A stretch of 64,000 nt of DNA. It comes from Sinomicrobium oceani. GTDB lineage: Bacteria; Bacteroidota; Bacteroidia; Flavobacteriales; Flavobacteriaceae. A program made the position numbers and the translations under genes. The stretch is taken from contig NZ_FPJE01000005.1 in the NCBI RefSeq assembly GCF_900119185.1, positions 124,001 to 188,000 of the forward strand. The letters run 5' to 3'. The notes under the pieces were generated by a model that was not told where the DNA came from, did no database searches, and saw only the letters and a list, made by a program, of their open reading frames with translations. Each line of letters begins with the position of its first letter. Position 1 is the stretch's first letter. Positions 2,273 through 55,709 of the stretch are shown here, piece after piece.

Positions 2273-3826
2273 TTATTGCAATATCCACATCAGCTCATTC
2301 ACATTGTCATTACCGCTGTACTGCCTGTCTATAGCTTCATTCAGATGGGTACTGTTGTAATCCAGTTCATTCTGCGGGTATAGCCACCGAACTGGTAGCC
2401 TGTCTGAAGGTATATTTTCGTTGGTTGCAGGATTGACAGGAAATTCCGGATATCCCGTTCTGCGGTTTTCGTAAAACCCTTCCCTCGGCGCCTGCATAAA
2501 TGTACAAATATATTTTTGCGTAATAATCTGCTCCAGCTGCGCTTCAAAAGTCCCTGCAAACTGTACGGCAGGGGTATTGTCATAATAATTATCAATATAA
2601 TCCGCATCCATGAGGCGACCGTGATTGAATGCTGCTCTTTCCGGCGTATTTTCAGCTACAAAACTCATGGCAGCCCGAATACCTTCCCGATAAAAACTTT
2701 CGGCATTCCCGGAAATCCATCCGCGAATATTCCCTTCGGCAAGCATAAACTGTACTTGTGCATAACTCATTATAAATACCGGTTCTCCTTCCGGGATCTC
2801 CTTATACCTGTCATTGATATCCGAATAATCATCGGTAGCGTGAATAGACTGCATATCGGCATAAGGCATGGAGGGGTCCGTTCCTTTATAAGCATCATAA
2901 TCCGAAACATCGGCGCCTCCTTCTATCGCTACGGGTGAAGGAGCAGCATAGTAGAACAGGCGAAAGTCTTCGAATTCTTTTAACTTATCGATAATAACAC
3001 TGGACACCATCGGATATATGACCGACTGGTTTCCCAGCTTATAAAAAGGATACATCTGGTTGGCAGCATTGACATAATTCAACTCAAAATTATCCTCATT
3101 TCCCTGTATTAACGGGCGATTAGCGACTATATCCGCAAAACGTTCCCGCACCCTCAGGTCCGTGTCGGCAGTTTTCTTATACAAGTATAGCAAGACCTTC
3201 AATTCGAAAGCATTTACCGCTTTTCGCCATTGCCCGACATTTCCTTCATAGATCATATCACCTGTAAAATCTTCCCCGGCTGCGAAAAGGGCATCTGCTT
3301 CATCCAATTCGTCCAGGATCCCTGCAAATACCTCCTTCTGAGTATCGTATAAAGGGCGAAGATTGCTCTCGCTCTCTCCTTTAAGGGCATCGCTATACGG
3401 AATATCCCCGACCTCTATAGACATATTAAAAAAATTGACAGCTCTGACGAAATGTCGTAACGCCCGGTACGAATTGACTATACCTTCGCCCAGCCCTTCG
3501 GTAGATTCTGCATATTCCACCATCTTGTCTGCATCGACCAACCGGCTCATCTTATTAAAATCTGTCCGGCTGAACCTGTTATACTGTTCGTTTCGGGGAA
3601 ACTCGCTCCACAGAATATATTTGCTATACATGTGTTGCCCCATAAAATTACTCGCAATGTCTTCTCTGGTTATATTGAGGATAACCTGTGAGGCCAGAGT
3701 CTCCGGACTTCCGGAAGTGATTCCGTCCGGATTGGTATTGATTTCATCAAAATCGCCTGTACATGCGGTATGAAGAAGAAGTAACAAAGCACTCCCCAAA
3801 GCCGCTTTTTTATATATACTTTTCAT
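2273..3826 (-). CDS. SusD/RagB-like outer-membrane lipoprotein (SusD-like_2 type)
   Basis: Surface lipoprotein that would act as the substrate-capturing lid of a SusC transporter. The 517-residue product starts with a lipoprotein signal (KKAALGSALLLLLHTAC, lipidated Cys at 22), followed by DFDEINTNPDG, typical of the SusD-like_2 group. Many aromatic residues and an alpha-helical TPR-like pattern follow, and the C-terminal region has the usual GYPEFPVNPATNE-type stretch. It starts 5 bp after the susC stop, so the two are surely co-transcribed and probably translationally coupled. No glycoside hydrolase is nearby; the nearest enzyme is a phospholipase C, so a carbohydrate ligand should not be assumed. 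Confidence 0.93.
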   Translation of the reverse strand: MKSIYKKAALGSALLLLLHTACTGDFDEINTNPDGITSGSPETLASQVILNITREDIASNFMGQHMYSKYILWSEFPRNEQYNRFSRTDFNKMSRLVDADKMVEYAESTEGLGEGIVNSYRALRHFVRAVNFFNMSIEVGDIPYSDALKGESESNLRPLYDTQKEVFAGILDELDEADALFAAGEDFTGDMIYEGNVGQWRKAVNAFELKVLLYLYKKTADTDLRVRERFADIVANRPLIQGNEDNFELNYVNAANQMYPFYKLGNQSVIYPMVSSVIIDKLKEFEDFRLFYYAAPSPVAIEGGADVSDYDAYKGTDPSMPYADMQSIHATDDYSDINDRYKEIPEGEPVFIMSYAQVQFMLAEGNIRGWISGNAESFYREGIRAAMSFVAENTPERAAFNHGRLMDADYIDNYYDNTPAVQFAGTFEAQLEQIITQKYICTFMQAPREGFYENRRTGYPEFPVNPATNENIPSDRLPVRWLYPQNELDYNSTHLNEAIDRQYSGNDNVNELMWILQ

Positions 3827-3831
3827 GTTTT

Positions 3832-6800
3832 CTATTTTTTGGATTTATCGGGATTGGCTATATGCAGATTAATATTCAACCCTACAAACCGTTGTGAAGG
3901 GGAAGAAAGCTCACTGTCGTTATTGGAATCCGGATCTGCAAAACGGAAATCCTTGGTCCACAAAAATACGTTCTGCGCCGTCAGGGATACTCTCGCCCTG
4001 CTCATCCCCCAACGTTCGCTAACCGATTTCGGAAGCGTGTACCCGATAGCTATTTCACGCAACTTGAAAAAGGTCGCGTCCGAAGCACCGAGCGTTCCGT
4101 CTCCATACCTACGGGCATACGTTTCGTAAGACACCTTGGTATCGTTGGAAGCATACGTACGGGTATCCTCTGTAATGCGACCGTATTGATCGTAAGTAAC
4201 AGTACCGGAGACCACCTGCACCCCATTACCCACATAAGACGTATTTCCGTTCACCACTTCATCGTACCGCCATTGGTTATCACTATCGGGATGCGATCCG
4301 GTATCCCACATTTTATACGATGTATAGTTGTACAATGTACCGCCTACGCGACCGTCAAAGCTAAGATGAAAATCAAAGTCCTTCCAGGTCAGCGCGTTGG
4401 TAAAACCCCAGATAAAATCGGGGTCCGTATATCCGAAAACCGAACCATAATCACTCCGTACAGGAAGCCCCCCGGTATTATGGATCACATTGCCATCCGG
4501 ATCCCGTAACCAAGCATTTCCGGTATAAACATCTACCCTTCCTCCGGATTTTGTCCAAAGATTGTTTGCCGAATAATCCGGATCGAGATCTTTGTAGTAC
4601 AGATGTGTCTTCGACCAGTTGATACTCATATCCCAGGTGAAGTCTTCTTTTTTGATTATCCCTGCATTCAGCGTTATTTCCAACCCTTTTCTCAACAGGG
4701 TTTCTTTGGTATTTACAAGGATCCCCGAAAATCCGGAAGAACCTGCTATAGACGCATATATCTGCCTGTCGTAATTATAAACGTTGTAGTAAGCGACATC
4801 CACGTTCAGGCGGTTCTGTAAAAAATAGGCTGCTGTTCCGATCTCCCAGGTCCTTTTTATCTCCGGAGAGATATCTTCATCTCTTCGGATGTTTCTCGTA
4901 TAGGAGGCACTGTTATAATCTCCCCAGGTACCGATATTCAAACTGTAATTGATATTGGTATCATATACATCGAGATCTTCTTTGGACTGTGTCCAGGACC
5001 CTCTTACTTTCCAGAGATCCATCCATTCGGGCAGGGTAGCCAGTTCATTGATCAGTACACTTCCCGCTACCGACGGATAAAAGAAAGACCTGGTGGAAGC
5101 CGGCAGGGATGAACTCCAGTCATTACGTCCGGTAACATCGACAAAAACGGCATCTTTCCAGGAAAAAGAAGCCAGCCCCAACAAACTGTTTACCTGTTTT
5201 TCTGTTCTGGACGAAGACACATTAGGCCTTTCTTTGGAATTATTCAGGGAGTATATTCCCGGAACCACCAATCCGTTCCTGGTAGAACTACCAAGGTATT
5301 CGTTTTCCCATTTAAACATGGATGCCCCTGCAGTCAGATCGATATCAAAATCGGTCCATACATCTTTTTTCTCGTAATTGAAGAGCAGGTCCGTATTCAG
5401 ACTGTATCCTTTATATTGGTTCACACTATACATTCCGTTGGCATGCCAGCCGCGGGTAGAGTTGATCCCGGGCGGATTTCTCCTCCTGTTGGTATTGGAA
5501 TAAAAATCGTAACCTACACGAGCTGTAATTTTCGCTCCCGAGAAAGGTTTGTACGAAGACGTTATATTACCATTAAGCATATTATTCTCCTGCCCGTTCA
5601 GTTTTTCGTAAGCGATGAGATAAGGATTATCGTACCAGGCTTTGTAATGCCAGTTCTGCTCCTGGTTTGGAACCACCCAATAATCCCGGAACTTCCTGAC
5701 ATCGTATTCGGGGCCGGTCCACATCAACAACTGATAGATATACCCCTGGTCTCCGTATCCCGCTCCTGTAGTCTGCGGAGCCGTGCTGCGATTATATCCC
5801 AGGGTACTTTGAAGTTCGAAATCATCGCCGAGTTTCAGCTTCCCGGTTACGTTGGCATTGAGCCTGTTGAGACGCAGGTTGGGATACTGTCCTTTATTAT
5901 ACACGTGGGTGATGGAGGTGCGTATGGACCCGATATCACCGGTTCGGGCAAAACTTACGTTATTGTTGGCTATAAAACCGGGTTCGAGGAAATTCTTAAA
6001 ATTATTTTTCCCCCTTGAGGTCAGCTCCATAACCTCGAGTTGCTTGGTTTCGGGATTCCATTGCTCTTCCATAATTCCCGCATCGAGTTTGTTCCCCCAA
6101 ACATAATCTACAGCATTGTATTCTCCGCCGATACCAGCACTGTAAGAATGCTGTACTTTGGGAAGTGCGAGATAACCGGCAAACATCATATTGTTGCTGT
6201 TTACGGAAATCCCGTTACCTCCGCTCTTGGTCGTAATCACTATAGCTCCTCCGCCTCCACGTATACCATATAAGGCGGATGCCGTTGCCCCTTTGAGTAC
6301 ATCCATACTTTCTATATCGTCAGGTGCGATCTGCTGAAGTGTCATATTACTATACGGAACGCCATCTACCACAAGTAACGGATTCTGAGTTCCTCCCCGA
6401 AGGCGTATCTGGGGCGCCTGGTTAAACTCCGTACTATTCTGTATACGAAGTCCTGCTACCTTTCCGGTAAGTGACGTAGCCACATCAACGCCTTTCACTT
6501 CCTGAACAGCATCTCCGCTCACACGCTGTACCGCATACCCGAGTTTTTTCTCTTCTCTTTTGATACCCAGCGCAGTAACCACTACATTCTCGAGAGCCTG
6601 TACGTCCTCCTGCATCGCTACGTTGATGGATGTACGTGTCCCCACGGTTTCTTCTTTTCGTTGAAAACCGATGTAACTGAACACCAGAATGCTCTCCGTA
6701 TCCGGAACAATCAGTTCGTATTTACCATCCATATCGGTAATAGCTCCCTGTGTCCCGTTTTTCACGAAGACAGACACACCCGGCAGGGGAAACCCGTCTC

Positions 6801-47017: not shown

Positions 47018-47259
47018 TCACAATTTTACCGATATTTGTGACCTAATCGACGTTTGTAATTTCCACATACCCCAAAGTCCGGAAAAACCAAAATATAAAA
47101 CGGAAACATGGAGCGTACAAAGTGTACCGAATATTCCCCTAAGAATAAGATAAAACCACGACGACGCCCCGGACTCCTTTATATTCTTACCGACGTCTTC
47201 TCCCGTTTAACCAGTTATTGATAACCGTAAAACCAAAACTGATTTCGAAACATATACTT

Positions 47260-48267
47260 ATGAAAAAAAACAAGACTTTAGGAGAGTTTATCATTGAGAA
47301 GCAAGCTGAGTTCAAATATTCCTCAGGTGAATTGTCGAAACTCATCAACGCGATCAGGCTCGCGGCCAAGGTGGTAAATCACGAAGTCAATAAAGCCGGA
47401 TTGGTAGACATTATAGGCGCATCGGGAGACACTAATATTCAGGGCGAAGACCAGCAGAAGCTGGACGTCATGGCGAATGAAAAATTCATTCAGACCCTGA
47501 GCAACCGAGAAATTGTATGTGGTATAGCTTCCGAAGAGGAAGACGATTTTATTACTATAAACAGCCACGACCAGAACCATCAGAACAAATATGTTGTGCT
47601 TATCGACCCTCTTGATGGCTCCAGCAACATTGATGTCAATGTCTCTGTCGGCACTATCTTTTCCATTTACCGGCGTATCACTCCCATAGGCACGCCGGTT
47701 ACCATGGCAGACTTCCTGCAACCCGGCAGAAATCAGGTTGCCGCAGGCTATGTGGTCTACGGCACCTCTACCATGCTGGTGTATACGACCGGGCACGGAG
47801 TCAACGGTTTTACGCTCAATCCTGCCATAGGCACTTTTTACCTGTCTCATCCCAACATGCAATTCCCCGAAAACGGTAATATCTATTCGGTAAACGAAGG
47901 CAACTATATCCATTTCCCACAGGGAGTCAAAGACTACATCAAATATTGCCAGGCCGAGGAAGACAACCGCCCTTACACCTCGAGATATATCGGCTCGCTG
48001 GTTTCCGACTTTCACCGGAACATGATCAAAGGAGGTATTTACCTCTATCCAAAAAGCAGCAAATCTCAGAACGGGAAATTGCGGTTACTCTACGAATGTA
48101 ACCCCATGGCTTTCATTGCGGAACAGGCCAACGGAAAAGCCAGTGACGGCTTCGGAAGAATCCTCGATATCCAACCGGACGAGCTTCATCAGCGCACTCC
48201 TTTTTTCTGCGGAAGTACAAAAATGGTTGACAAACTGGAAGAATTCATGGTTAAGTCCCATATTTAA
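47260..48267 (+). CDS. fbp: Fructose-1,6-bisphosphatase, class I
   Basis: Gluconeogenic phosphatase, 335 residues from the ATG at 47260 ([15 protein letters not shown]); an in-frame start at 47218 would add 14 residues not expected for the family. Metal-binding and catalytic motifs: [35 protein letters not shown] near residue 110, and [23 protein letters not shown] with [17 protein letters not shown] in the C-terminal part. Length fits class I. Confidence 0.96.
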
Positions 48268-48299
48268 AGGGAATTGACTCTTTGTTATCTGATTTTTGC

Positions 48300-48307
48300 T
48301 AACTTTG
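48300..48307 (+). promoter_or_regulatory. Candidate -7 box (TAACTTTG) of the small-GTPase cluster
   Basis: Exact TAnnTTTG match 23 bp before the start of the small coiled-coil gene; a TTTG lies 15 bp further upstream, a slightly short spacer. Confidence 0.5.
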
Positions 48308-48330
48308 CCCCAAATTCATACCGTACAACC

Positions 48331-48687
48331 ATGTCTAAGGAAAAAAATCACCCTGAAGCCAATGGCGCTTCCGTAGATCCTATGTCGAAGATAGACGCGA
48401 TCAGGAATCTCATATTCGGTGAGAACATACAGGAATATAATTCCGAATTCGAATCCGTTAAAAAAGACATCCTTCAGAAGAAAAAAGAACTGGAGACTTT
48501 GATCGAAGATACCCGCACAGAGCTTATGCAGACTATTGACAGTCTCGGCACGGATGTCAACATCAGGATCACCGAACTTGAGAATTCCCTACAGGAAAAA
48601 GCAGATACGCTTGACCAGAACAAAGTGGACAAAGCCACGCTGGGAAAACTCCTCATTCAAATTGGAGAAAAAATAAAGGATAATTAA
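48331..48687 (+). CDS. Small coiled-coil protein of the GTPase/kinase cluster
   Basis: Soluble protein of 118 residues with no signal peptide or membrane helix. Residues about 40-105 are a long charged heptad pattern (SVKKDILQKKKELETLIEDT, then LENSLQEKADTLDQNKVDKA), so it is probably a coiled-coil oligomer. The C-terminal ATLGKLLIQIGEKIKDN is short and amphipathic. I recognise no catalytic domain. The next gene begins 120 bp downstream and opens with a similar small helical N-terminus (KLNILKDILLTDDREY versus KIDAIRNLIFGENIQEY), which suggests the two share an N-terminal unit or partner. Confidence 0.75.
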   Translation: MSKEKNHPEANGASVDPMSKIDAIRNLIFGENIQEYNSEFESVKKDILQKKKELETLIEDTRTELMQTIDSLGTDVNIRITELENSLQEKADTLDQNKVDKATLGKLLIQIGEKIKDN

Positions 48688-48807
48688 TTTGGAGATACAT
48701 ACTCCGGTAGGTATCCGTACAACGAGCTGGCCATCTTCCGGGGTGAGCCTATTACCTGTTTTCAGATAGTTTGTATACTACAACAGGTTTGACCTGCAAT
48801 TATCTTT

Positions 48808-49644
48808 ATGTTTATGATGAATGAGAACGACAAATTAAACATCCTCAAAGATATTCTCCTTACCGATGACAGGGAGTATGCAGAAACCATTGCCAACAAA
48901 ATAAAGGCCTTGGAAGAGGTCCTTCATACCCGTTCGGAACTCGCAGGAAAGGTCGACCCTATTATAGACAGCAAACTGGAAGAATTTATCGAGGAGATCC
49001 CCAAAACCCTCGGACCGACTATTACGGAAACACTTAAGATCGAAATCAAAAATTCCAAAGATCAGGTTGTGGAAGCCCTTTACCCCATTATGGGACGAAT
49101 GATTAAAAAGTACGTCTGGCAGGAAATAAAGTTACTATCCGAGCAGGTCAGCTCTCAGGTAGAAAACAGTTTTTCGCTCGCCGCATGGAAACGGAGGCTA
49201 AAATCCTGGATCACCGGGGTTAAGGAACACGACCTTATTTTATCGGAATTGGGAGACGTCTCTATCGAACAGGTTTTTGTCATCGAAAAAAATTCCGGGA
49301 TCCTTCTCGGAAACTATGCCAAAAGGGAAACCATAGATAAAGAGATGTTCTCCGGAATGCTAACGGCAATCAAATCGTTTGTCGAAGACGCATTCCGGCA
49401 AAAAGCCCAGAATCTGGAACTTATAGAATATGAACTGTACCATATTCACATACAAAGTTTTGTTTCGTATTACATTGCCGTAGTGGTCTCAGGACAATAC
49501 AACACCCCGTTAAAAAACAAACTACAGGACACCATTTTCAAATTTTCGGAAAATTTCCTGAGCCTGATGCTCTACAATCCGGAAATCACACAAGATGATA
49601 TTGTAAACGAACTAAATTTTTATTTTAACGATGATCACATCTAA
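48808..49644 (+). CDS. Roadblock/longin-like regulatory protein paired with a small GTPase
   Basis: Soluble protein of up to 278 residues (start may be 48814 or 48817, as ATGs are clustered). The N-terminal half is helical (about 1-130, with KVDPIIDSKLEEFIEEIPKT). The C-terminal half (about 150-265) reads IEQVFVIEKNSGILLGNYA, then DKEMFSGMLTAIKSFVEDAF and SFVSYYIAVVVSGQY, a pattern I associate with roadblock/longin folds that bind small GTPases (MglB-like). This is an inference from pattern, not a search. The gene overlaps the GTPase gene by 14 bp, so the two are tightly coupled and probably act as G-protein and regulator. Confidence 0.65.
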   Translation: MFMMNENDKLNILKDILLTDDREYAETIANKIKALEEVLHTRSELAGKVDPIIDSKLEEFIEEIPKTLGPTITETLKIEIKNSKDQVVEALYPIMGRMIKKYVWQEIKLLSEQVSSQVENSFSLAAWKRRLKSWITGVKEHDLILSELGDVSIEQVFVIEKNSGILLGNYAKRETIDKEMFSGMLTAIKSFVEDAFRQKAQNLELIEYELYHIHIQSFVSYYIAVVVSGQYNTPLKNKLQDTIFKFSENFLSLMLYNPEITQDDIVNELNFYFNDDHI

Positions 49645-50116
49645 AAAAATTGTTCTTTTGGGGCATTTTGGTGTCGGAAAAACGTCTTTGGTAAGACGTT
49701 TTGTAGAAGACTCCTTTTCGGACAATTACAAAGTTACCATTGGAGTACATATCCTAAAAAAAGAAGTTACTCTGCCCGAAAACCAGGTAAACCTGATTAT
49801 CTGGGACATAGAGGGTAATGAAGATATTACGAAAACACGCTCCTCATACCTCCTGGGATCTCACGGCTTTATTTACGTGTTTGATACTACCCGGAAAACA
49901 ACTTATGAAAATCTCGCTTCAGACCTGGAACACTTAAAGACTACATATAACAATGTCCCTGTGGTTGTGGTCGGGAACAAAAGTGACCTGGTCACCAGAA
50001 GTCACATGAAGGAGAACAAGGCTTATTTCAAACCGGTAGATTACTTCTCCAGTGCCAAGACAGGGGCCAATGTGGACACTATTTTTGAAGAACTTACCAA
50101 AAAAATAATCCTGTAA
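49631..50116 (+). CDS. Ras/Rab-like small GTPase
   Basis: Bacterial Ras-superfamily GTPase, 161 residues, no other domain. G motifs in order: P-loop GHFGVGKTSL (10-19), switch I Thr in YKVTIGVHILKK (Rab-like TIGV), G3 WDIEGNED instead of WDxxGQE, G4 GNKSD and G5 SSAK. The switch II Gln that activates water in Ras is replaced by Asn (GNE), so intrinsic hydrolysis may be slow or depend on a partner. No lipidation Cys is present at the C-terminus. The start codon lies inside the preceding gene and the stop is 1 bp before the kinase gene, so all three genes are probably one translational unit. Confidence 0.92.
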   Translation: MITSKKIVLLGHFGVGKTSLVRRFVEDSFSDNYKVTIGVHILKKEVTLPENQVNLIIWDIEGNEDITKTRSSYLLGSHGFIYVFDTTRKTTYENLASDLEHLKTTYNNVPVVVVGNKSDLVTRSHMKENKAYFKPVDYFSSAKTGANVDTIFEELTKKIIL

Positions 50117-50117
50117 T

Positions 50118-51626
50118 ATGCTTGAATCCTATAAAGAGCAATTCTTATATCCCAAAGTTCAGTTTATTGTGATTTCGGGAGAAGGCAAGATCCTGGCTTC
50201 TGACGATATCCTTTTTCCGTTTGCGGAAAAGGAAAACATAGCAGATTGCCATCCCTTTTTCGAAAGTATCCTCCCGCTTATGGAGCCCAAAGAAGATGCA
50301 CTCTCTTTTTCCTGTGTACATATAGGTGAAAAAATATGCGATATTAATTGCAGGACCTTTAAAGACAAACATCCCCTGATCACTATTCACGATCTGTCCG
50401 AACACTACGAATCGCTGCAGACCGTCGCACAGAAGCGGAACGAAACCCTCATCGAATCCGAAATACTGACACTGCAAAACACATATCTCAAAGAAAAAGA
50501 GGCTTTTAAACGAACGTTTATTGCTAATTTCAGTCATGAGATACGCAACCCCCTTACCGGGGTATTTTCCTTTACGGAAATGCTCGAAAAAACCAGTTTG
50601 TCCGACGAACAGTTCGACCTGGTTGAAGTGATCAAATCGCTCTGTCAGGATTTGAACATCATGATCAACGACATTCTTGACCTCTCCAAAATAGAAGTAG
50701 GCAAATTCGTGGTAAATAATGAAATATTCGATTTTTCCGAGTTACTGCACTCCACGGAATTTATCTACACGACCAAAGCAAGGCAGAAAAACCTCAACTT
50801 CCGGATGCATGTCGACAAAAAACTGCCCAAATATATCGAGGGAGACAAAACACGCATAAAACAAATACTTACCAATGTCATAGAAAATGCCATCAAGTTC
50901 ACGGAAAAAGGCGACATAGACCTGCATATAACATTAAATCACAAACGGGCGAACAAGGCGAATATACAATTTCGAATCACAGATACCGGAATAGGGATAC
51001 CCAAAGAAGCTATTCATGATATTTTCACCAGTTTTTCCCAGGTACACAAAGACAACAAATATCCGGGAACTGGACTGGGGCTGACCATCGTAAAAAATCT
51101 CGTCACCCTGATGCAGGGAGATATCTCGGCAGAAAGCGAGCCGGGTCGGGGAACTACTATTTCTTTCAATCTCAAACTCAGGTTTCCTCTCCATTACAAA
51201 GAAACCGCCAGGAAAGAAAAGGTGGAGAAAAAAGTGCTCTTCAACACAAAGAAAAAATACAACATCCTGTTGGTTGAAGACAATAAGATCAGTCAGATTA
51301 TCGTATTGAAGATACTCTCTTCGCAGGGTTCTTTTTTTCTGGATATTGCCGAAAACGGCACTCAGGCCATGGAAAGAACCGAGGAAACCCGTTACGACCT
51401 TATTCTCCTGGATATAAGATTACCCGATGTAACAGGGTATGAACTTGCACCTGCACTGCGGAATCACGCAGAGAAAAAACATACCAAAACACCGATTATA
51501 GCCCTATCGGGAAGTATGCTCGGCGACGGAAAGCAAAAATACAGAAAAGCAGGAATTAACGATGCACTTCAGAAGCCTTTCCAGGAACAACAATTGCTGC
51601 AAAAGCTTCATAAACACCTGAAGTAG
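50118..51626 (+). CDS. Soluble hybrid histidine kinase with C-terminal receiver
   Basis: Hybrid kinase of 502 residues without membrane segment. About 1-115 is a PAS-like sensor region (VQFIVISGEGKILASDDILF). Then a HisKA box with the phospho-His in FSHEIRNPL (about 140), a HATPase with N-box NVIENAIKFTEKG, G1 DTGIGI and G2 GTGLGLTIVKN, and a C-terminal receiver (about 383-500) with VEDN, phospho-Asp in LLDIRLPDVTG and Lys in LQKPF. It starts 1 bp after the GTPase stop. No separate DNA-binding regulator or Hpt gene is nearby, so the output is unknown. It would be controlled by the upstream GTPase module, which is an inference from gene order. Confidence 0.93.
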   Translation: MLESYKEQFLYPKVQFIVISGEGKILASDDILFPFAEKENIADCHPFFESILPLMEPKEDALSFSCVHIGEKICDINCRTFKDKHPLITIHDLSEHYESLQTVAQKRNETLIESEILTLQNTYLKEKEAFKRTFIANFSHEIRNPLTGVFSFTEMLEKTSLSDEQFDLVEVIKSLCQDLNIMINDILDLSKIEVGKFVVNNEIFDFSELLHSTEFIYTTKARQKNLNFRMHVDKKLPKYIEGDKTRIKQILTNVIENAIKFTEKGDIDLHITLNHKRANKANIQFRITDTGIGIPKEAIHDIFTSFSQVHKDNKYPGTGLGLTIVKNLVTLMQGDISAESEPGRGTTISFNLKLRFPLHYKETARKEKVEKKVLFNTKKKYNILLVEDNKISQIIVLKILSSQGSFFLDIAENGTQAMERTEETRYDLILLDIRLPDVTGYELAPALRNHAEKKHTKTPIIALSGSMLGDGKQKYRKAGINDALQKPFQEQQLLQKLHKHLK

Positions 51627-51639
51627 AAGCGTTGAACAA

Positions 51640-51660
51640 CCCCGGTTCAAAAAACCGGGG
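51640..51660. terminator. Hairpin between the kinase and TerB-like genes
   Basis: CCCCGGTT, 5-base loop, AACCGGGG. There is no T-run on the plus strand; the convergent genes may share it as a weak bidirectional terminator. Confidence 0.6.
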
Positions 51661-51665
51661 AGATC

Positions 51666-52097
51666 CTATCTGTTCATATGCTTCATCTCTTCCTTAAATG
51701 TATCCAGGTCTACACCATGAGATACCAGGTCATACGCTTTGGCTATAATATATTTGATGTTGCCGGGAGTGAAGCCGAGTCCTACTGCCAGTTTAGACAA
51801 TACACTGGTTTCTTCTTCATCTGCAATATGATCGGCATAAACCATACGGGTCAGATCATAAAGCCTTTCCAGCCGTGAATCGTAGAAAAAAGGAGGGTTG
51901 ATCGGATACTTCTCCGGGTTTTTAAGAACCGCGGCATAATCTTCTTCCGAAATATTAAGATTATGAGCAAGGCGATCGAGGAACGCTTTTTCTTCCGGGT
52001 TTATAGCTCCGTCAGAAAGTGCCACACGGACTATCGCCGCGAAATGATCCCTGTTACGCTCCAAAAATGCATTCGAATATAAATCTAAGATTGACAT
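51666..52097 (-). CDS. TerB-like (tellurite-resistance-family) protein
   Basis: Cytoplasmic helical protein of 143 residues. The start at 52097 (MSILDLYSN) is preferred; the longer frame begins with an unlikely leader. The TerB/DjlA N-terminal fold is suggested by FAAIVRVALSDGAINPEEKAFLDRLAHNL, with paired acidic residues that often bind metal, and the second YADHIADEEETSVLSKLAVGLGF. Despite the family name, most members are not shown to act in tellurite resistance. Confidence 0.8.
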   Translation of the reverse strand: MSILDLYSNAFLERNRDHFAAIVRVALSDGAINPEEKAFLDRLAHNLNISEEDYAAVLKNPEKYPINPPFFYDSRLERLYDLTRMVYADHIADEEETSVLSKLAVGLGFTPGNIKYIIAKAYDLVSHGVDLDTFKEEMKHMNR

Positions 52098-52254
52098 ACC
52101 TCTTATTGTTAAATCTTCAAATTTTGCGCAAATATACATCTTTATACCAAACACGAACAAGATACATCTCCAATATTAAACCGTATCGCAGAACAGGCAA
52201 CTCCCCTCCCCGTTCATATTTAATCCGTTAATACGGTTACAAATCGGTTTTTAT

Positions 52255-52262
52255 TACCTTTG
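52255..52262 (+). promoter_or_regulatory. Candidate -7 box (TACCTTTG) of mfd
   Basis: Exact TAnnTTTG match 15 bp before the GTG at 52278. It overlaps an in-frame TTG at 52260, which rules that codon out as the start and supports the GTG. Confidence 0.55.
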
Positions 52263-52277
52263 CACAAAATTTATAAT

Positions 52278-55200
52278 GTGAGCAAGACCCATGCCTCGCC
52301 AGTTTCACTCCCGCCATCCATCGGGACAATGGGAACAGAACAGTCTCCGCAAACGCGAAAACTGCAGGACGCTATTGCCCGGATCCAACCTCCGCAACGC
52401 ATATATCTCAACGGACTCATAGGATCTTCGCTTTCGTTTGTCATTGCCGACAGTTTTAAAAACAACGACCTTCCCTACCTGTTGATACTCAACGACAAGG
52501 AAGAAGCAGCCTATTACCTCAACGACCTGGAACAACTTATCGGCGAAGAACACGTGTTGTTTTATCCCGGAAGCTACCGAAGGCCCTACCAGATCGAAGA
52601 GACGGATAATGCCAACGTACTGCTTCGGGCAGAAGTACTGAACCGCCTGAACTCGCGTAAAAAACCTGCGTTGATCGTCACCTATCCCGATGCCCTCTTC
52701 GAGAAGGTTGTTACCCGGAAAGAGCTGGAAAAAAATACGCTGAAAATGAAAGTAGGCGAAACCATTGCTCCCGATTTCATCAATGAAGTCCTGTTCGAAT
52801 ACCGTTTTAAGAGAGTGGACTTCGTTTCCGAACCCGGCGAATTTTCGGTACGTGGCGGGATCATAGATGTGTTCTCCTTTTCCAATGACGAACCCTACAG
52901 GATTGAGTTTTTCGGTGACGAAGTAGACAGTATCCGAACCTTTGATGTGGAAACACAGCTTTCCGTACACAAGCTCAACAAAATTACGATTATTCCGAAT
53001 GTAGAGAATAAAGTCCGGAATGAATCCAGAGAAGGTTTTCTGGAATATATTTCACCGAAAACCGTTGTTTTCTTCCAGAGTTACGAAATTTTGTCATCGC
53101 GGATAGATTCGTTATTCCGGAAAGCTGAAGAGGCTTTTGCATCACTTTCTACCGAAACAAAGCACGCTTCTCCTCATGAACTTTTCTGTACTCCAAAACA
53201 CATTCACGAGCAATTGTCCCGTTTGGTCGTAGCGGAGACCGGAAACCAGTCCGGAATCGCATTCCGGCATAAAGCGAAGGAAAAACACGGAGAGATCATT
53301 ACGTTCCGCACCAGACCACAGCCTTCGTTCAACAAACAGTTTGACCTCCTGATCGAAGATCTCGACAGGAACCGGGCCGATGGCTACACCAACTACATCT
53401 TCTGTGTCAGCGAGCAGCAGGCCAAACGCTTTCACGATATTTTCGAGGAGATCGAGGGTGAGGTCTATTACAAAACGATCGTTTTCCCCATATACCAGGG
53501 TTTTATCGATGATGACCGAAAGATGGTCTGTTATACGGACCATCAGATCTTTGAACGTTATCATAAATTTCACCTCAAGAATGGTTATGCAAAAAAACAG
53601 GCCATAACCCTCAAAGAACTGACCCAGCTCGAGATCGGCGATTATGTAACCCATATAGATCACGGTATCGGTAAGTTCGGCGGACTACAGAAGATACAGG
53701 TGGAAGGCAAACTCCAGGAAGCCATAAAACTCGTGTATGGCGACGGGGATATCCTGTATGTAAGTATTCACTCCCTGCACAAGATCACCAAATACAACGG
53801 TAAGGACGGCAAACCTCCCAAGATATTCAAACTGGGAAGCAGTGCTTGGAAAAACCTGAAAAAGAAAACCAAAAGCCGGGTCAAGGAAATAGCATTCAGC
53901 CTTATAAATTTATACGCCAAACGACGGACAGAAAAAGGATATTCCTACGCTCCGGACAGTTACCTGCAACACGAACTCGAAGCCTCCTTCATTTATGAGG
54001 ACACCCCCGACCAGAGCAAAGCGACACAGGATGTTAAAAACGACATGGAAAGCGAACATCCGATGGACCGGCTTGTTTGCGGCGATGTAGGGTTCGGAAA
54101 AACGGAAGTTGCCATCAGGGCCGCATTCAAAGCGGTAGACAACAGCAAGCAGGTGGCTATTCTGGTCCCTACCACCATACTTGCCTTTCAGCATTACAAG
54201 ACTTTCAGTGAGCGGCTCAAAGATCTGCCCGTCACCGTAGATTACCTCAATCGTTTCCGTACAGCCAGAGAAAAAAGGGATATCCTTGAAAAGCTCGGAA
54301 CAGGACAGATCGATATTATCATCGGAACGCATCAGTTGGTTAATAAAAATGTACAATTCAAAGACCTGGGATTGCTCATCGTAGATGAAGAACAAAAATT
54401 CGGGGTAGCCGCCAAGGAAAAACTAAAGAACCTGAAAGAAAATGTCGACGTTCTTACGCTAACGGCCACGCCTATTCCCAGGACACTGCAGTTCAGCCTT
54501 ATGGCTGCAAGGGATTTATCCGTGATCACCACCCCCCCGCCCAACCGTTACCCTATAGAGAGCCATGTGATACAGTTTAACGAAGAGATCATCCGCGATG
54601 CGGTATCCTATGAAATACAACGCGGAGGGCAGGTCTTTTTTATTCATAACCGCATAGAAAACATCAAGGAAGTCGCCGGCATGATCCAGCGGCTGGTCCC
54701 CGATGCCAAGGTAGGTATAGGACACGGCCAGATGGAAGGAAAAAAACTGGAACAGCTCATGCTCGGTTTTATGAACGGAGAATTTGATGTCCTGATCTCC
54801 ACAACCATTATCGAAAGTGGTCTTGATGTTCCTAATGCCAATACGATCTTTATCAATAATGCCAATAATTTCGGGTTGAGCGACCTGCACCAGATGCGGG
54901 GACGTGTCGGCCGGAGTAATAAAAAGGCTTTTTGTTATTTCATTACCCCGCCCTATTCGGCCATGACCGAAGATGCCCGTAAACGAATACAGGCGCTGGA
55001 ACAATTCACCGAACTGGGAAGTGGTTTTAATATTGCCATGAAAGACCTGGAAATCCGTGGTGCGGGTGACCTACTCGGCGGAGAACAAAGCGGATTTATT
55101 AACGATATCGGTTTTGACACTTACCAGAAGATACTGAGCGAAGCCATAGAGGAACTCAAGGAAAACGAATTCAAGGACCTTTATCCGCAGGATGAAGAAA

Positions 55201-55709
55201 CACGGGAATATGTCAAAGATACCCAGATCGATACCGATTTCGAACTGCTCTTCCCGGACGAATACGTCAACAATATTACCGAAAGGCTCAACCTGTACAA
55301 CCGTCTGAGCACGATTACGACCGAAGAAGAACTCGAAAAGTACGAAACAGACCTCATTGACCGTTTCGGTCCCCTTCCCCGACAGGTAAAAGACCTCCTG
55401 AACAGTGTACGGATCAAGTGGATTGCTTCGGAAGCCGGGCTGGAAAAAGTAGTACTTAAACACGGTAAAATGGTCGGTTATTTCATTGCCGATCAACAGA
55501 GCAGTTTTTACCAGAGTAAAACCTTCAACCGCGTGATCCGGACCGTACAGCAAAACCCGGCCCTGTGCAAAATGAAAGAAAAGAATACCCGTCTCGGCGG
55601 ATTGAGGCTTTTACTTACTTTTGACCATATCACCTCGGTCAACAAGGCTTTGAAGGCCCTGAGCCCTTTTGTGGTCAAAGAAGCAGCACACTCCGAAACC
55701 GGATATTAA
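52278..55709 (+). CDS. mfd: Transcription-repair coupling factor
   Basis: ATP-dependent translocase that removes stalled RNA polymerase and recruits UvrA, 1143 residues from the GTG at 52278 (read as MSKTHASPVS). Domain order: UvrB-like N-terminal part (DDLEQLIGEEHVLFYPGSYRRPYQ, EPGEFSVRGGIIDVFS), the CarD-like RNA-polymerase-interaction domain (IGDYVTHIDHGIGKFGGL), helicase with Walker A CGDVGFGKTEVA and DEEQKFG motif, RecG-like second helicase half (IGHGQMEGKKLEQLML, GLDVPNANTIFI, MRGRVGRSNKKAFCY) and the C-terminal TRCF domain. The motif DEEQKFG has Lys where DEEQRFG is more common. A normal-length, intact gene. Confidence 0.97.
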   Translation: MSKTHASPVSLPPSIGTMGTEQSPQTRKLQDAIARIQPPQRIYLNGLIGSSLSFVIADSFKNNDLPYLLILNDKEEAAYYLNDLEQLIGEEHVLFYPGSYRRPYQIEETDNANVLLRAEVLNRLNSRKKPALIVTYPDALFEKVVTRKELEKNTLKMKVGETIAPDFINEVLFEYRFKRVDFVSEPGEFSVRGGIIDVFSFSNDEPYRIEFFGDEVDSIRTFDVETQLSVHKLNKITIIPNVENKVRNESREGFLEYISPKTVVFFQSYEILSSRIDSLFRKAEEAFASLSTETKHASPHELFCTPKHIHEQLSRLVVAETGNQSGIAFRHKAKEKHGEIITFRTRPQPSFNKQFDLLIEDLDRNRADGYTNYIFCVSEQQAKRFHDIFEEIEGEVYYKTIVFPIYQGFIDDDRKMVCYTDHQIFERYHKFHLKNGYAKKQAITLKELTQLEIGDYVTHIDHGIGKFGGLQKIQVEGKLQEAIKLVYGDGDILYVSIHSLHKITKYNGKDGKPPKIFKLGSSAWKNLKKKTKSRVKEIAFSLINLYAKRRTEKGYSYAPDSYLQHELEASFIYEDTPDQSKATQDVKNDMESEHPMDRLVCGDVGFGKTEVAIRAAFKAVDNSKQVAILVPTTILAFQHYKTFSERLKDLPVTVDYLNRFRTAREKRDILEKLGTGQIDIIIGTHQLVNKNVQFKDLGLLIVDEEQKFGVAAKEKLKNLKENVDVLTLTATPIPRTLQFSLMAARDLSVITTPPPNRYPIESHVIQFNEEIIRDAVSYEIQRGGQVFFIHNRIENIKEVAGMIQRLVPDAKVGIGHGQMEGKKLEQLMLGFMNGEFDVLISTTIIESGLDVPNANTIFINNANNFGLSDLHQMRGRVGRSNKKAFCYFITPPYSAMTEDARKRIQALEQFTELGSGFNIAMKDLEIRGAGDLLGGEQSGFINDIGFDTYQKILSEAIEELKENEFKDLYPQDEETREYVKDTQIDTDFELLFPDEYVNNITERLNLYNRLSTITTEEELEKYETDLIDRFGPLPRQVKDLLNSVRIKWIASEAGLEKVVLKHGKMVGYFIADQQSSFYQSKTFNRVIRTVQQNPALCKMKEKNTRLGGLRLLLTFDHITSVNKALKALSPFVVKEAAHSETGY

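What the first reader, a model, noticed from the sequence alone, without database searches (positions are those of the whole stretch)
48331..51626. Ras-like GTPase / roadblock-like / hybrid kinase module
Four consecutive genes encode a small coiled-coil protein, a roadblock/longin-like protein, a free-standing Ras/Rab-like GTPase and a soluble hybrid histidine kinase. The last three overlap by 14 bp or are 1 bp apart. A GTPase with a putative MglB-like partner feeding a phosphorelay would be a signalling circuit combining G-protein and two-component logic. The kinase has no transmembrane sensor and no cognate output gene nearby. I know of MglA/MglB as a bacterial precedent for a Ras-like GTPase with a roadblock partner, but not of this four-gene arrangement.
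Basis: partly seen in the sequence, partly recalled or inferred. Interest (0 to 1): 0.82.

Follow-up and report, generated by a model that had tools for sequence, protein, structure and literature searches.

The report
Rup GTPase–kinase signalling operon
Four neighbouring genes encode a bacterial signalling unit in which a Ras/Rab-like GTPase probably sits on a hidden roadblock/longin-type partner and steers a histidine kinase; this gene set was described in 2014 without a known function, and the hidden partner domain appears to be new.

Summary
Genes at 48331-48687, 48808-49644, 49631-50116 and 50118-51626 encode a coiled-coil-like protein, a 278-aa protein without a Pfam family, a Ras-type GTPase and a soluble hybrid histidine kinase. 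The order is kept in 28 of 28 distinct Bacteroidia loci found through the 278-aa gene. The arrangement is not new: PMC4316618 described it as the neighbourhood of Group 1 Rup GTPases. This member meets the criteria tested: no catalytic G3 glutamine, the same four components, an invariant glutamine in the kinase's N-terminal region. That paper found no Rup coupled to MglB. AlphaFold2 plus Foldseek put residues ~150-273 of the 278-aa protein in the roadblock/longin fold (the 50 listed PDB hits all appear to be of that fold), but model confidence is moderate to low and sequence support weak. This gene and rup occur in the same 14 of 395 genomes. Proposed, not shown: Rup docks on a roadblock/longin platform, and Rup-GTP acts on the PAS-like N-terminus of an exchangeable output (here a hybrid kinase; elsewhere a simple kinase or sigma-54 activator). 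A member of a little-studied known system, plus one apparently new clue about a bacterial Rab-like GTPase.

The parts
48274..48307 (+). promoter-like element TTG-N23-TAacTTTG, 23 bp before the ATG of gene 1
   Evidence: Pattern scan: with spacing 17-23 the pattern occurs 2 times on + and 4 times on - in the whole 64-kb window. Similar elements lie near the start of gene 1 in the 4 Sinomicrobium loci printed (L012, L013, L014, L029) and in none of the 16 other loci printed. The Bacteroidota consensus is recalled, not from a call.
48331..48687 (+). gene 1, 118-aa coiled-coil-like protein (Rup-system coiled-coil component)
   Evidence: Only weak Pfam matches to helical families, no coiled-coil program was run; profile relatives beside gene 2 in 28 of 28 Bacteroidia loci and 10 of 11 OmpA-type loci
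48808..49644 (+). gene 2, 278-aa protein: helical N-terminal half (~1-135) plus C-terminal roadblock/longin-type domain (~150-273)
   Evidence: AlphaFold2 order b-b-a-b-b-b-a-a; block pLDDT 73-76 at 151-170, 37-57 at 171-210, 67-84 at 211-278; Foldseek against PDB; no Pfam family; relatives with hydrophobic segment and OmpA domain
49631..50116 (+). gene 3, 161-aa Rup-type Ras-like GTPase; G1 GHFGVGKT, G3 WDIEGN (Asn at the Gln61 position), G4 NKSD, G5 SAK
   Evidence: Pfam Ras 3.9e-36; the 60 PDB relatives shown are mostly Rab/Ypt proteins; no Gln at the G3 position in 26 of 26 aligned sequences, window included; motifs
50118..51626 (+). gene 4, 502-aa soluble hybrid histidine kinase: PAS-like N-terminus (1-~93), helix with invariant Gln105, HisKA (His140), HATPase_c, receiver domain
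   Evidence: Pfam; AlphaFold2 of residues 1-131, mean pLDDT 91.9; Foldseek hits; Gln105 invariant in 20 of 20 close relatives and 21 of 21 outputs of several types; motifs

Best explanation
This is a Group 1 Rup signalling operon. Gene 2 uses a cryptic roadblock/longin domain, probably as a dimer, as the platform that binds the Rup GTPase and sets its GTP/GDP state. Rup-GTP, or the Rup-gene 2 complex, acts on the PAS-like N-terminus and following helix of the hybrid kinase and switches its autophosphorylation; the phosphate then passes to the kinase's receiver and on to unlinked partners. Because Rup lacks the catalytic G3 glutamine, hydrolysis must be helped from outside; the invariant Gln105 of the output protein is the candidate, as PMC4316618 suggested for its invariant Gln, so the effector would also end the signal. 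Gene 1 would be a coiled-coil scaffold. Shown: gene content, synteny, co-occurrence, missing G3 Gln, invariant output Gln. Predicted: the folds. Inferred: every binding and catalytic step.
For: Same four components as the published Group 1 Rup neighbourhood. No Gln at the G3 position in 26 of 26 sequences. Gene 2 fold: the 50 PDB hits listed (of 700 at E<=10; 16 at E<=1e-3) all appear to be roadblock/longin-fold chains or complexes that contain them, including MglB-MglA and Ragulator; the same pipeline on the PAS-like domain gave phytochrome, chemoreceptor and PAS hits first. Gene 2 (E<=0.001) and Rup (E<=1e-15) occur in the same 14 of 395 genomes (exact coincidence by chance 4.9e-26, which ignores relatedness). 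In 3 of the 14 the two lie on different contigs, so co-occurrence is not only linkage. Outputs differ (hybrid kinase, kinase with Hpt, simple kinase, sigma-54 activator), yet the one column invariant in all 21 aligned N-termini is Gln105. Genes 2 and 3 overlap by 8-20 bp in 22 of the 27 Bacteroidia loci where both ORFs were called (mechanical starts; 4 do not overlap, 1 is unclear; recounted), which suggests coupled translation.
Against: No binding or activity is shown. The gene 2 model has mean pLDDT 52, no residue above 90, and blocks of 37-57 inside the domain; Foldseek rmsd values are large (4.3-9.6 A for the small targets). Profile-profile comparison with MglB is weak: 22% and 41% probability with the Flavobacteriaceae-led profile, 5% and 36% with the OmpA-type-led one; score 25.4 against a best of 24.7 in 200 column shuffles. 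The gene 2 domain scored nearly as high against the unrelated Rup profile (15.5%, over only 15 columns). No PDB chain of the fold is found by sequence with two gene 2 profiles. Output N-termini of kinases from OmpA-type loci are barely linked to this one by profile (1-4%), so the 21-of-21 Gln rests partly on the MAFFT alignment. Nothing shows which way the signal flows.
Confidence: 0.6

Rival explanations
1. Reverse flow, as proposed for actinobacterial conservons: the kinase is the input, its action on gene 2 or gene 1 protein shifts the Rup nucleotide state, and Rup-GTP is the output through an unknown effector.
For: Conservon authors suggest that the kinase phosphorylates another system protein and that the GTPase is the output (PMC13343842 section 17; PMC4316618 section 18). 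No cognate response regulator lies nearby.
Against: The kinase position is filled by a sigma-54 activator in L045 (Pfam) and, by similarity of the first 190 residues, in L046: an output and not an upstream kinase. This kinase has its own receiver domain.
Confidence: 0.2
2. Gene 2 is a scaffold or envelope sensor whose roadblock/longin-like domain only dimerises and does not regulate Rup; regulation of the GTPase is by something encoded elsewhere.
For: Relatives outside Bacteroidia carry a hydrophobic segment and an OmpA domain, and in 3 of the 14 genomes gene 2 is not beside rup.
Against: Co-occurrence with rup in the same 14 of 395 genomes and overlap of the two genes in 22 of 27 loci. Longin and roadblock domains share a mode of GTPase binding (passages of PMC3521125).
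Confidence: 0.15
3. The C-terminal domain of gene 2 is some other PAS/profilin-like alpha-beta domain and the roadblock/longin match is an artefact of a low-confidence model.
For: Low mean pLDDT, weak sequence evidence, and a comparable profile score against the Rup family.
Against: The 50 listed structural hits appear to be of one superfamily and no PAS domain is listed. Pfam's longin model PF19036 hits the same domain below cut-off in 2 relatives, and in 24 whole genomes its only matches with E<1 are those 2 genes.
Confidence: 0.12

Closest known systems
Group 1 Rup GTPase neighbourhood (Wuichet & Sogaard-Andersen 2014, PMC4316618)
   Same: Rup GTPase without G3 Gln; coiled-coil protein; conserved unknown-domain protein; kinase or other output with an invariant N-terminal Gln; Bacteroidetes among the taxa
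   Different: Here gene 2 has no TM or OmpA tail, the output is a soluble hybrid kinase, and gene 2 is assigned a roadblock/longin-type domain. Sigma-54 activators as output (in relatives) are not among the outputs named in the sections read (16-18).
Actinobacterial conservon / AGPS (CvnA-D)
   Same: Histidine kinase, roadblock protein, protein of unknown role and Ras-like GTPase in one operon
   Different: The GTPase belongs to the MglA family there, the roadblock protein is MglB-type, the kinase is membrane-bound in the form described, and no response regulator is included (PMC4316618 section 18; abstract of PMC13343842)
MglA/MglB polarity module
   Same: Small GTPase with a roadblock-fold partner, linked to two-component proteins
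   Different: Gene 2 does not match Robl_LC7; the GTPase fits Rup and not MglA; the kinase is in the operon
Tri-longin RabGEFs (Mon1-Ccz1, Fuzzy-Inturned, HPS1-HPS4)
   Same: Roadblock/longin-type fold beside a Rab-like GTPase; sub-threshold Pfam matches to their first longin domain in 2 relatives
   Different: One such domain and not three; bacterial; no match in the window's own protein; exchange activity unknown

Membership tests
Group 1 Rup system | Ras-superfamily GTPase lacking the catalytic Gln of G3 | tested here: met
   Asn in the window; no Gln in 26 of 26 aligned sequences
Group 1 Rup system | Neighbouring coiled-coil protein and conserved unknown-domain protein | tested here: met
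   28 of 28 Bacteroidia loci; relatives of gene 2 with OmpA domain. Coiled coil of gene 1 judged from weak Pfam matches only.
Group 1 Rup system | Output protein whose N-terminal region has an invariant Gln | tested here: met
   Gln105, 21 of 21 outputs aligned; whether it is the same Gln as in the paper's logo could not be checked, figures are not held
Group 1 Rup system | GTPase falls in the Rup Group 1 clade of a tree | not tested
   No tree with reference Rup and MglA sequences was built
MglB / Robl_LC7 | Match to Pfam PF03259 | tested here: not met
   No match in gene 2 (E<=1) nor among the 19 families listed for 18 relatives incl. the window (E<=0.1); none in the genome at E<=0.01
Roadblock/longin fold superfamily | b-b-a-b-b-b-a order and structural match to members | tested here: met
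   model confidence moderate to low, sequence support weak
Longin versus roadblock | Second helix after strand 5 (longin) or a helix before strand 1 (roadblock) | tested here: inconclusive
   The model has both a short helix 140-147 and a helix 262-273; the distinction is partly recalled, the circular permutation is in a passage of PMC3521125
Actinobacterial conservon | MglA-family GTPase with Robl_LC7 CvnB | tested here: not met
   Rup-type G3 motif, no Robl_LC7
RabGEF | Nucleotide exchange on the partner GTPase | not testable with these tools
   Needs biochemistry

The most novel reading that the evidence does not exclude
[quoted passage not shown] The Rab-longin partnership thought typical of eukaryotic membrane traffic would then have a bacterial counterpart, here wired to a histidine kinase whose PAS-like region supplies the missing catalytic glutamine in trans.
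Probability: 0.2. Interest if true: 0.85.

Novelty: new member of a known kind. Interest (0 to 1): 0.5.

Why it matters
[quoted passage not shown] PMC4316618 stated in 2014 that no Rup member had been characterised by experiment, and the paper searches here listed no such study since (listings only). Giving their constant partner a roadblock/longin-type fold would fill a gap: Rup was reported as never coupled to MglB. It turns an unnamed protein into a testable GEF, GAP or platform and bears on where eukaryotic longin-Rab pairs came from. The Sinomicrobium version, with no strongly hydrophobic segment in any of the four proteins, is convenient for biochemistry.

Tried and rejected
Robl_LC7 membership of gene 2: rejected. 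Chance neighbourhood: rejected by synteny and co-occurrence. Mutual exclusion of Rup and Robl_LC7: no overlap between 31 and 14 of 395 genomes, but zero overlap has probability 0.31 by chance, so no claim. PDB sequence search with two gene 2 profiles gave nothing of the fold.

Most weak Pfam matches of gene 2 relatives are scattered and treated as noise. The two longin models are quoted only because they fall on the predicted domain and a reverse search returned the same genes; they are below cut-off. In that reverse search all 24 genomes carry gene 2, yet 22 of 24 gave no match with E<1, and the same model also gave matches at E<=10 in 3 of 14 control genomes, so the support is thin.

A first hhalign test used wrong-frame ORFs in the MglB set; its MglB part is discarded and one search replaces it, but its control of gene 2 domain against the Rup profile (15.5%, 15 columns) stands and is told. 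One ORF given to Pfam (L055:2764-3846) was in the wrong frame and gave nothing; the right ORF (2802-4139) was used. L051 and L054 have no output beside gene 2 and were left out, as were L102-L104. PMC7159879 passages concern other GTPases.
Full report
What is there. Genes 2 and 3 overlap by 14 bp, genes 3 and 4 are 1 bp apart, genes 1 and 2 are 120 bp apart. A TTG-N23-TAnnTTTG element, the kind of promoter recalled for Bacteroidota, sits at 48274-48307. The nearest relatives are Sinomicrobium genomes. The neighbours are FBPase upstream and TerB and Mfd downstream.

Domains. Gene 3 is a Ras-type GTPase (E=3.9e-36); the 60 PDB relatives shown are mostly Rab/Ypt proteins. Gene 4 has HisKA, HATPase_c and a receiver domain with the expected H, N, G and D motifs and no strongly hydrophobic stretch. 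Gene 2 has no Pfam match above cut-off.

Conservation. Gene 2 relatives were found in 11 of 60 relatives searched, in 14 of 395 genomes of the phylum (both counts include the window's genome), and as 19 named loci. In all 28, genes 1, 2, 3 and 4 follow in order on one strand: genes 1-3 by profile, with gene 3 of L027 by tblastn; gene 4 (cut off by the locus end in L003; split into two ORFs in L024). Genes 2 and 3 overlap by 8-20 bp in 22 of the 27 loci with both ORFs called, do not overlap in 4 (L058, L060, L061, L062) and are unclear in L059, whose mechanical start is extended (recounted).

Outside Bacteroidia 12 gene 2 relatives were found in 11 genomes; 11 of them were fetched with wide flanks. 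They are 589-636 aa. The 8 checked for hydropathy have maxima of 1.9-2.5 at residues 298-362. The 9 scanned whole by Pfam have an OmpA match, 8 above the cut-off and L050 at 27.0 against 27.2 bits. Gene 1 adjoins gene 2 in 10 of 11; rup follows on the same strand in 5, is divergent in 4 and lies elsewhere in the genome in 2.

Co-occurrence. A profile of the GTPases (26 sequences) hits, at E<=1e-15, exactly the 14 of 395 genomes that hold gene 2 (at most 9 candidates per genome were scored). In 3 of the 14 (G071, G092, G188) the two genes are on different contigs. Under independence the exact coincidence would be 4.9e-26, which ignores shared ancestry. Some profile rows came from these genomes, so hits there are expected; the informative part is that none of the other 381 genomes passes. 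Robl_LC7 occurs in 31 of 395 genomes and in none of these 14, which is not significant (0.31).

Known system. PMC4316618 (passages, and sections 16-18 read) defines Group 1 Rup GTPases, without the G3 glutamine, found among others in Bacteroidetes, none of them coupled to MglB. It describes a four-gene neighbourhood: a predicted coiled-coil protein; a protein with a conserved unknown domain, often followed by a TM helix and OmpA; the GTPase; and an output, typically a diguanylate cyclase/phosphodiesterase or a histidine kinase, with an invariant N-terminal Gln. The window meets these points. A search for papers with two of 'Rup family', 'Rup GTPases', 'MglA' returned only this paper; the listings of the other searches showed no experimental study of a Rup protein and no title or abstract start on a longin or roadblock domain in a Rup system. 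The library holds only open-licence papers, so such work may exist elsewhere.

Gene 2 fold. AlphaFold2 on 20 aligned sequences gave mean pLDDT 52; the helical N-terminal half is mostly below 50, and the C-terminal part has blocks of 73-76 (151-170), 37-57 (171-210) and 67-84 (211-278). The order is b152-160, b166-171, a178-195, b203-208, b211-217, b221-228, a233-256, a262-273. Foldseek against PDB gave 16 matches at E<=1e-3 and 700 at E<=10. The 50 listed are AP and COPI adaptor subunits, Ragulator, Rag GTPase complexes, TRAPP, MglB, Asgard roadblock and axonemal doublet complexes; as far as titles and recalled composition tell, all are roadblock/longin-fold chains. TM-scores normalised to the targets of up to 147 residues are 0.43-0.73, with large rmsd (4.3-9.6 A). 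The PAS-like domain of gene 4, folded the same way (mean pLDDT 91.9), matched phytochrome, chemoreceptor and PAS structures first, with longin-containing entries only from rank 38 down, so the two assignments differ.

Sequence support for that fold is weak. hhalign between the gene 2 C-domain and 11 MglB-type proteins aligned 86 columns at probability 22%, score 25.4; the best two of 200 column shuffles scored 24.7 and 23.8. With 17 MglB-like proteins the probability was 41%. With an OmpA-type sequence as master the values were 5% and 36%; in global mode the four values were 4%, 6%, 25% and 29%. Gene 2 N-terminal half, PAS-like domain and Rup against MglB stayed below 7%. Against this, the gene 2 domain compared with the Rup profile gave 15.5% over 15 columns, so local scores of this size are not decisive. 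Pfam's first longin domain of FUZ/MON1/HPS1 matched L057 (residues 180-224, E=0.0012, 19.5 bits against a cut-off of 26.1) and L049 (E=0.047) within this domain. Run over 24 genomes that carry gene 2, that model had two matches with E<1, both inside gene 2 of those two genomes; the other 22 gave none, and 3 of 14 control genomes gave some match at E<=10.

Outputs. In relatives the place of gene 4 is taken by a kinase with receiver and Hpt (L057), simple kinases (L048, L052) or a PAS-sigma54-Fis activator (L045). L046 and L047 have similar-sized proteins there whose first 190 residues resemble L045's. In L102-L104 rup overlaps a 307-aa protein (no Pfam match in the one scanned, L102) with a QQANE stretch, followed by a kinase-type ORF. 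Of 21 output N-termini aligned (5 of the 20, plus 16 others), the one invariant column was Gln105 of the window kinase, in the helix after the PAS-like core; the next best column was 18 of 21. The profile link is firm between the Flavobacteriaceae set and other Bacteroidia (100%), modest to the sigma-54 group (17-44%) and weak to kinases of the OmpA-type loci (1-4%).

Mechanism. I propose that gene 2 is the platform, and perhaps the exchange or activating factor, for Rup; that Rup-GTP acts on the PAS-like N-terminus of whatever output is fitted; and that Gln105 supplies the missing catalytic residue, as PMC4316618 speculated. Because very different outputs share this region, the flow Rup to output is likelier than output to Rup, but conservon work leans to the reverse for a related layout (PMC13343842, abstract and section 17). 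None of these steps has been measured.

Verdict. What appears to be new is the fold of the constant partner and a sigma-54 activator as output; the invariant glutamine is an independent confirmation.

Noticed in passing
L102:4023-6680, L103:2522-5271, L104:2334-5143: rup overlaps a 307-aa protein (no Pfam match in L102, the one scanned) that has a QQANE stretch, followed by a kinase-type gene; gene 2 (OmpA type) is on another contig. Possibly a stand-alone adaptor form of the output N-terminus.
   Followed up: partly
L045:1902-3656, L046:8002-9756: A PAS-sigma54-Fis activator (Pfam for L045; L046 by similarity of its first 190 residues) takes the place of the kinase next to rup.
   Followed up: partly
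G310 (L052, L053): One genome carries two gene 2 (OmpA) plus rup pairs.
   Followed up: no
L024:11326-12867: The kinase gene of a Maribacter MAG is split into two ORFs, a broken gene or an assembly error.
   Followed up: no
window 47218-55709: In the Sinomicrobium and Kordia loci long enough to show it, the module sits between FBPase and TerB/Mfd genes; the long loci L024, L026, L027 and L030 from other Flavobacteriaceae lack these neighbours.
   Followed up: partly
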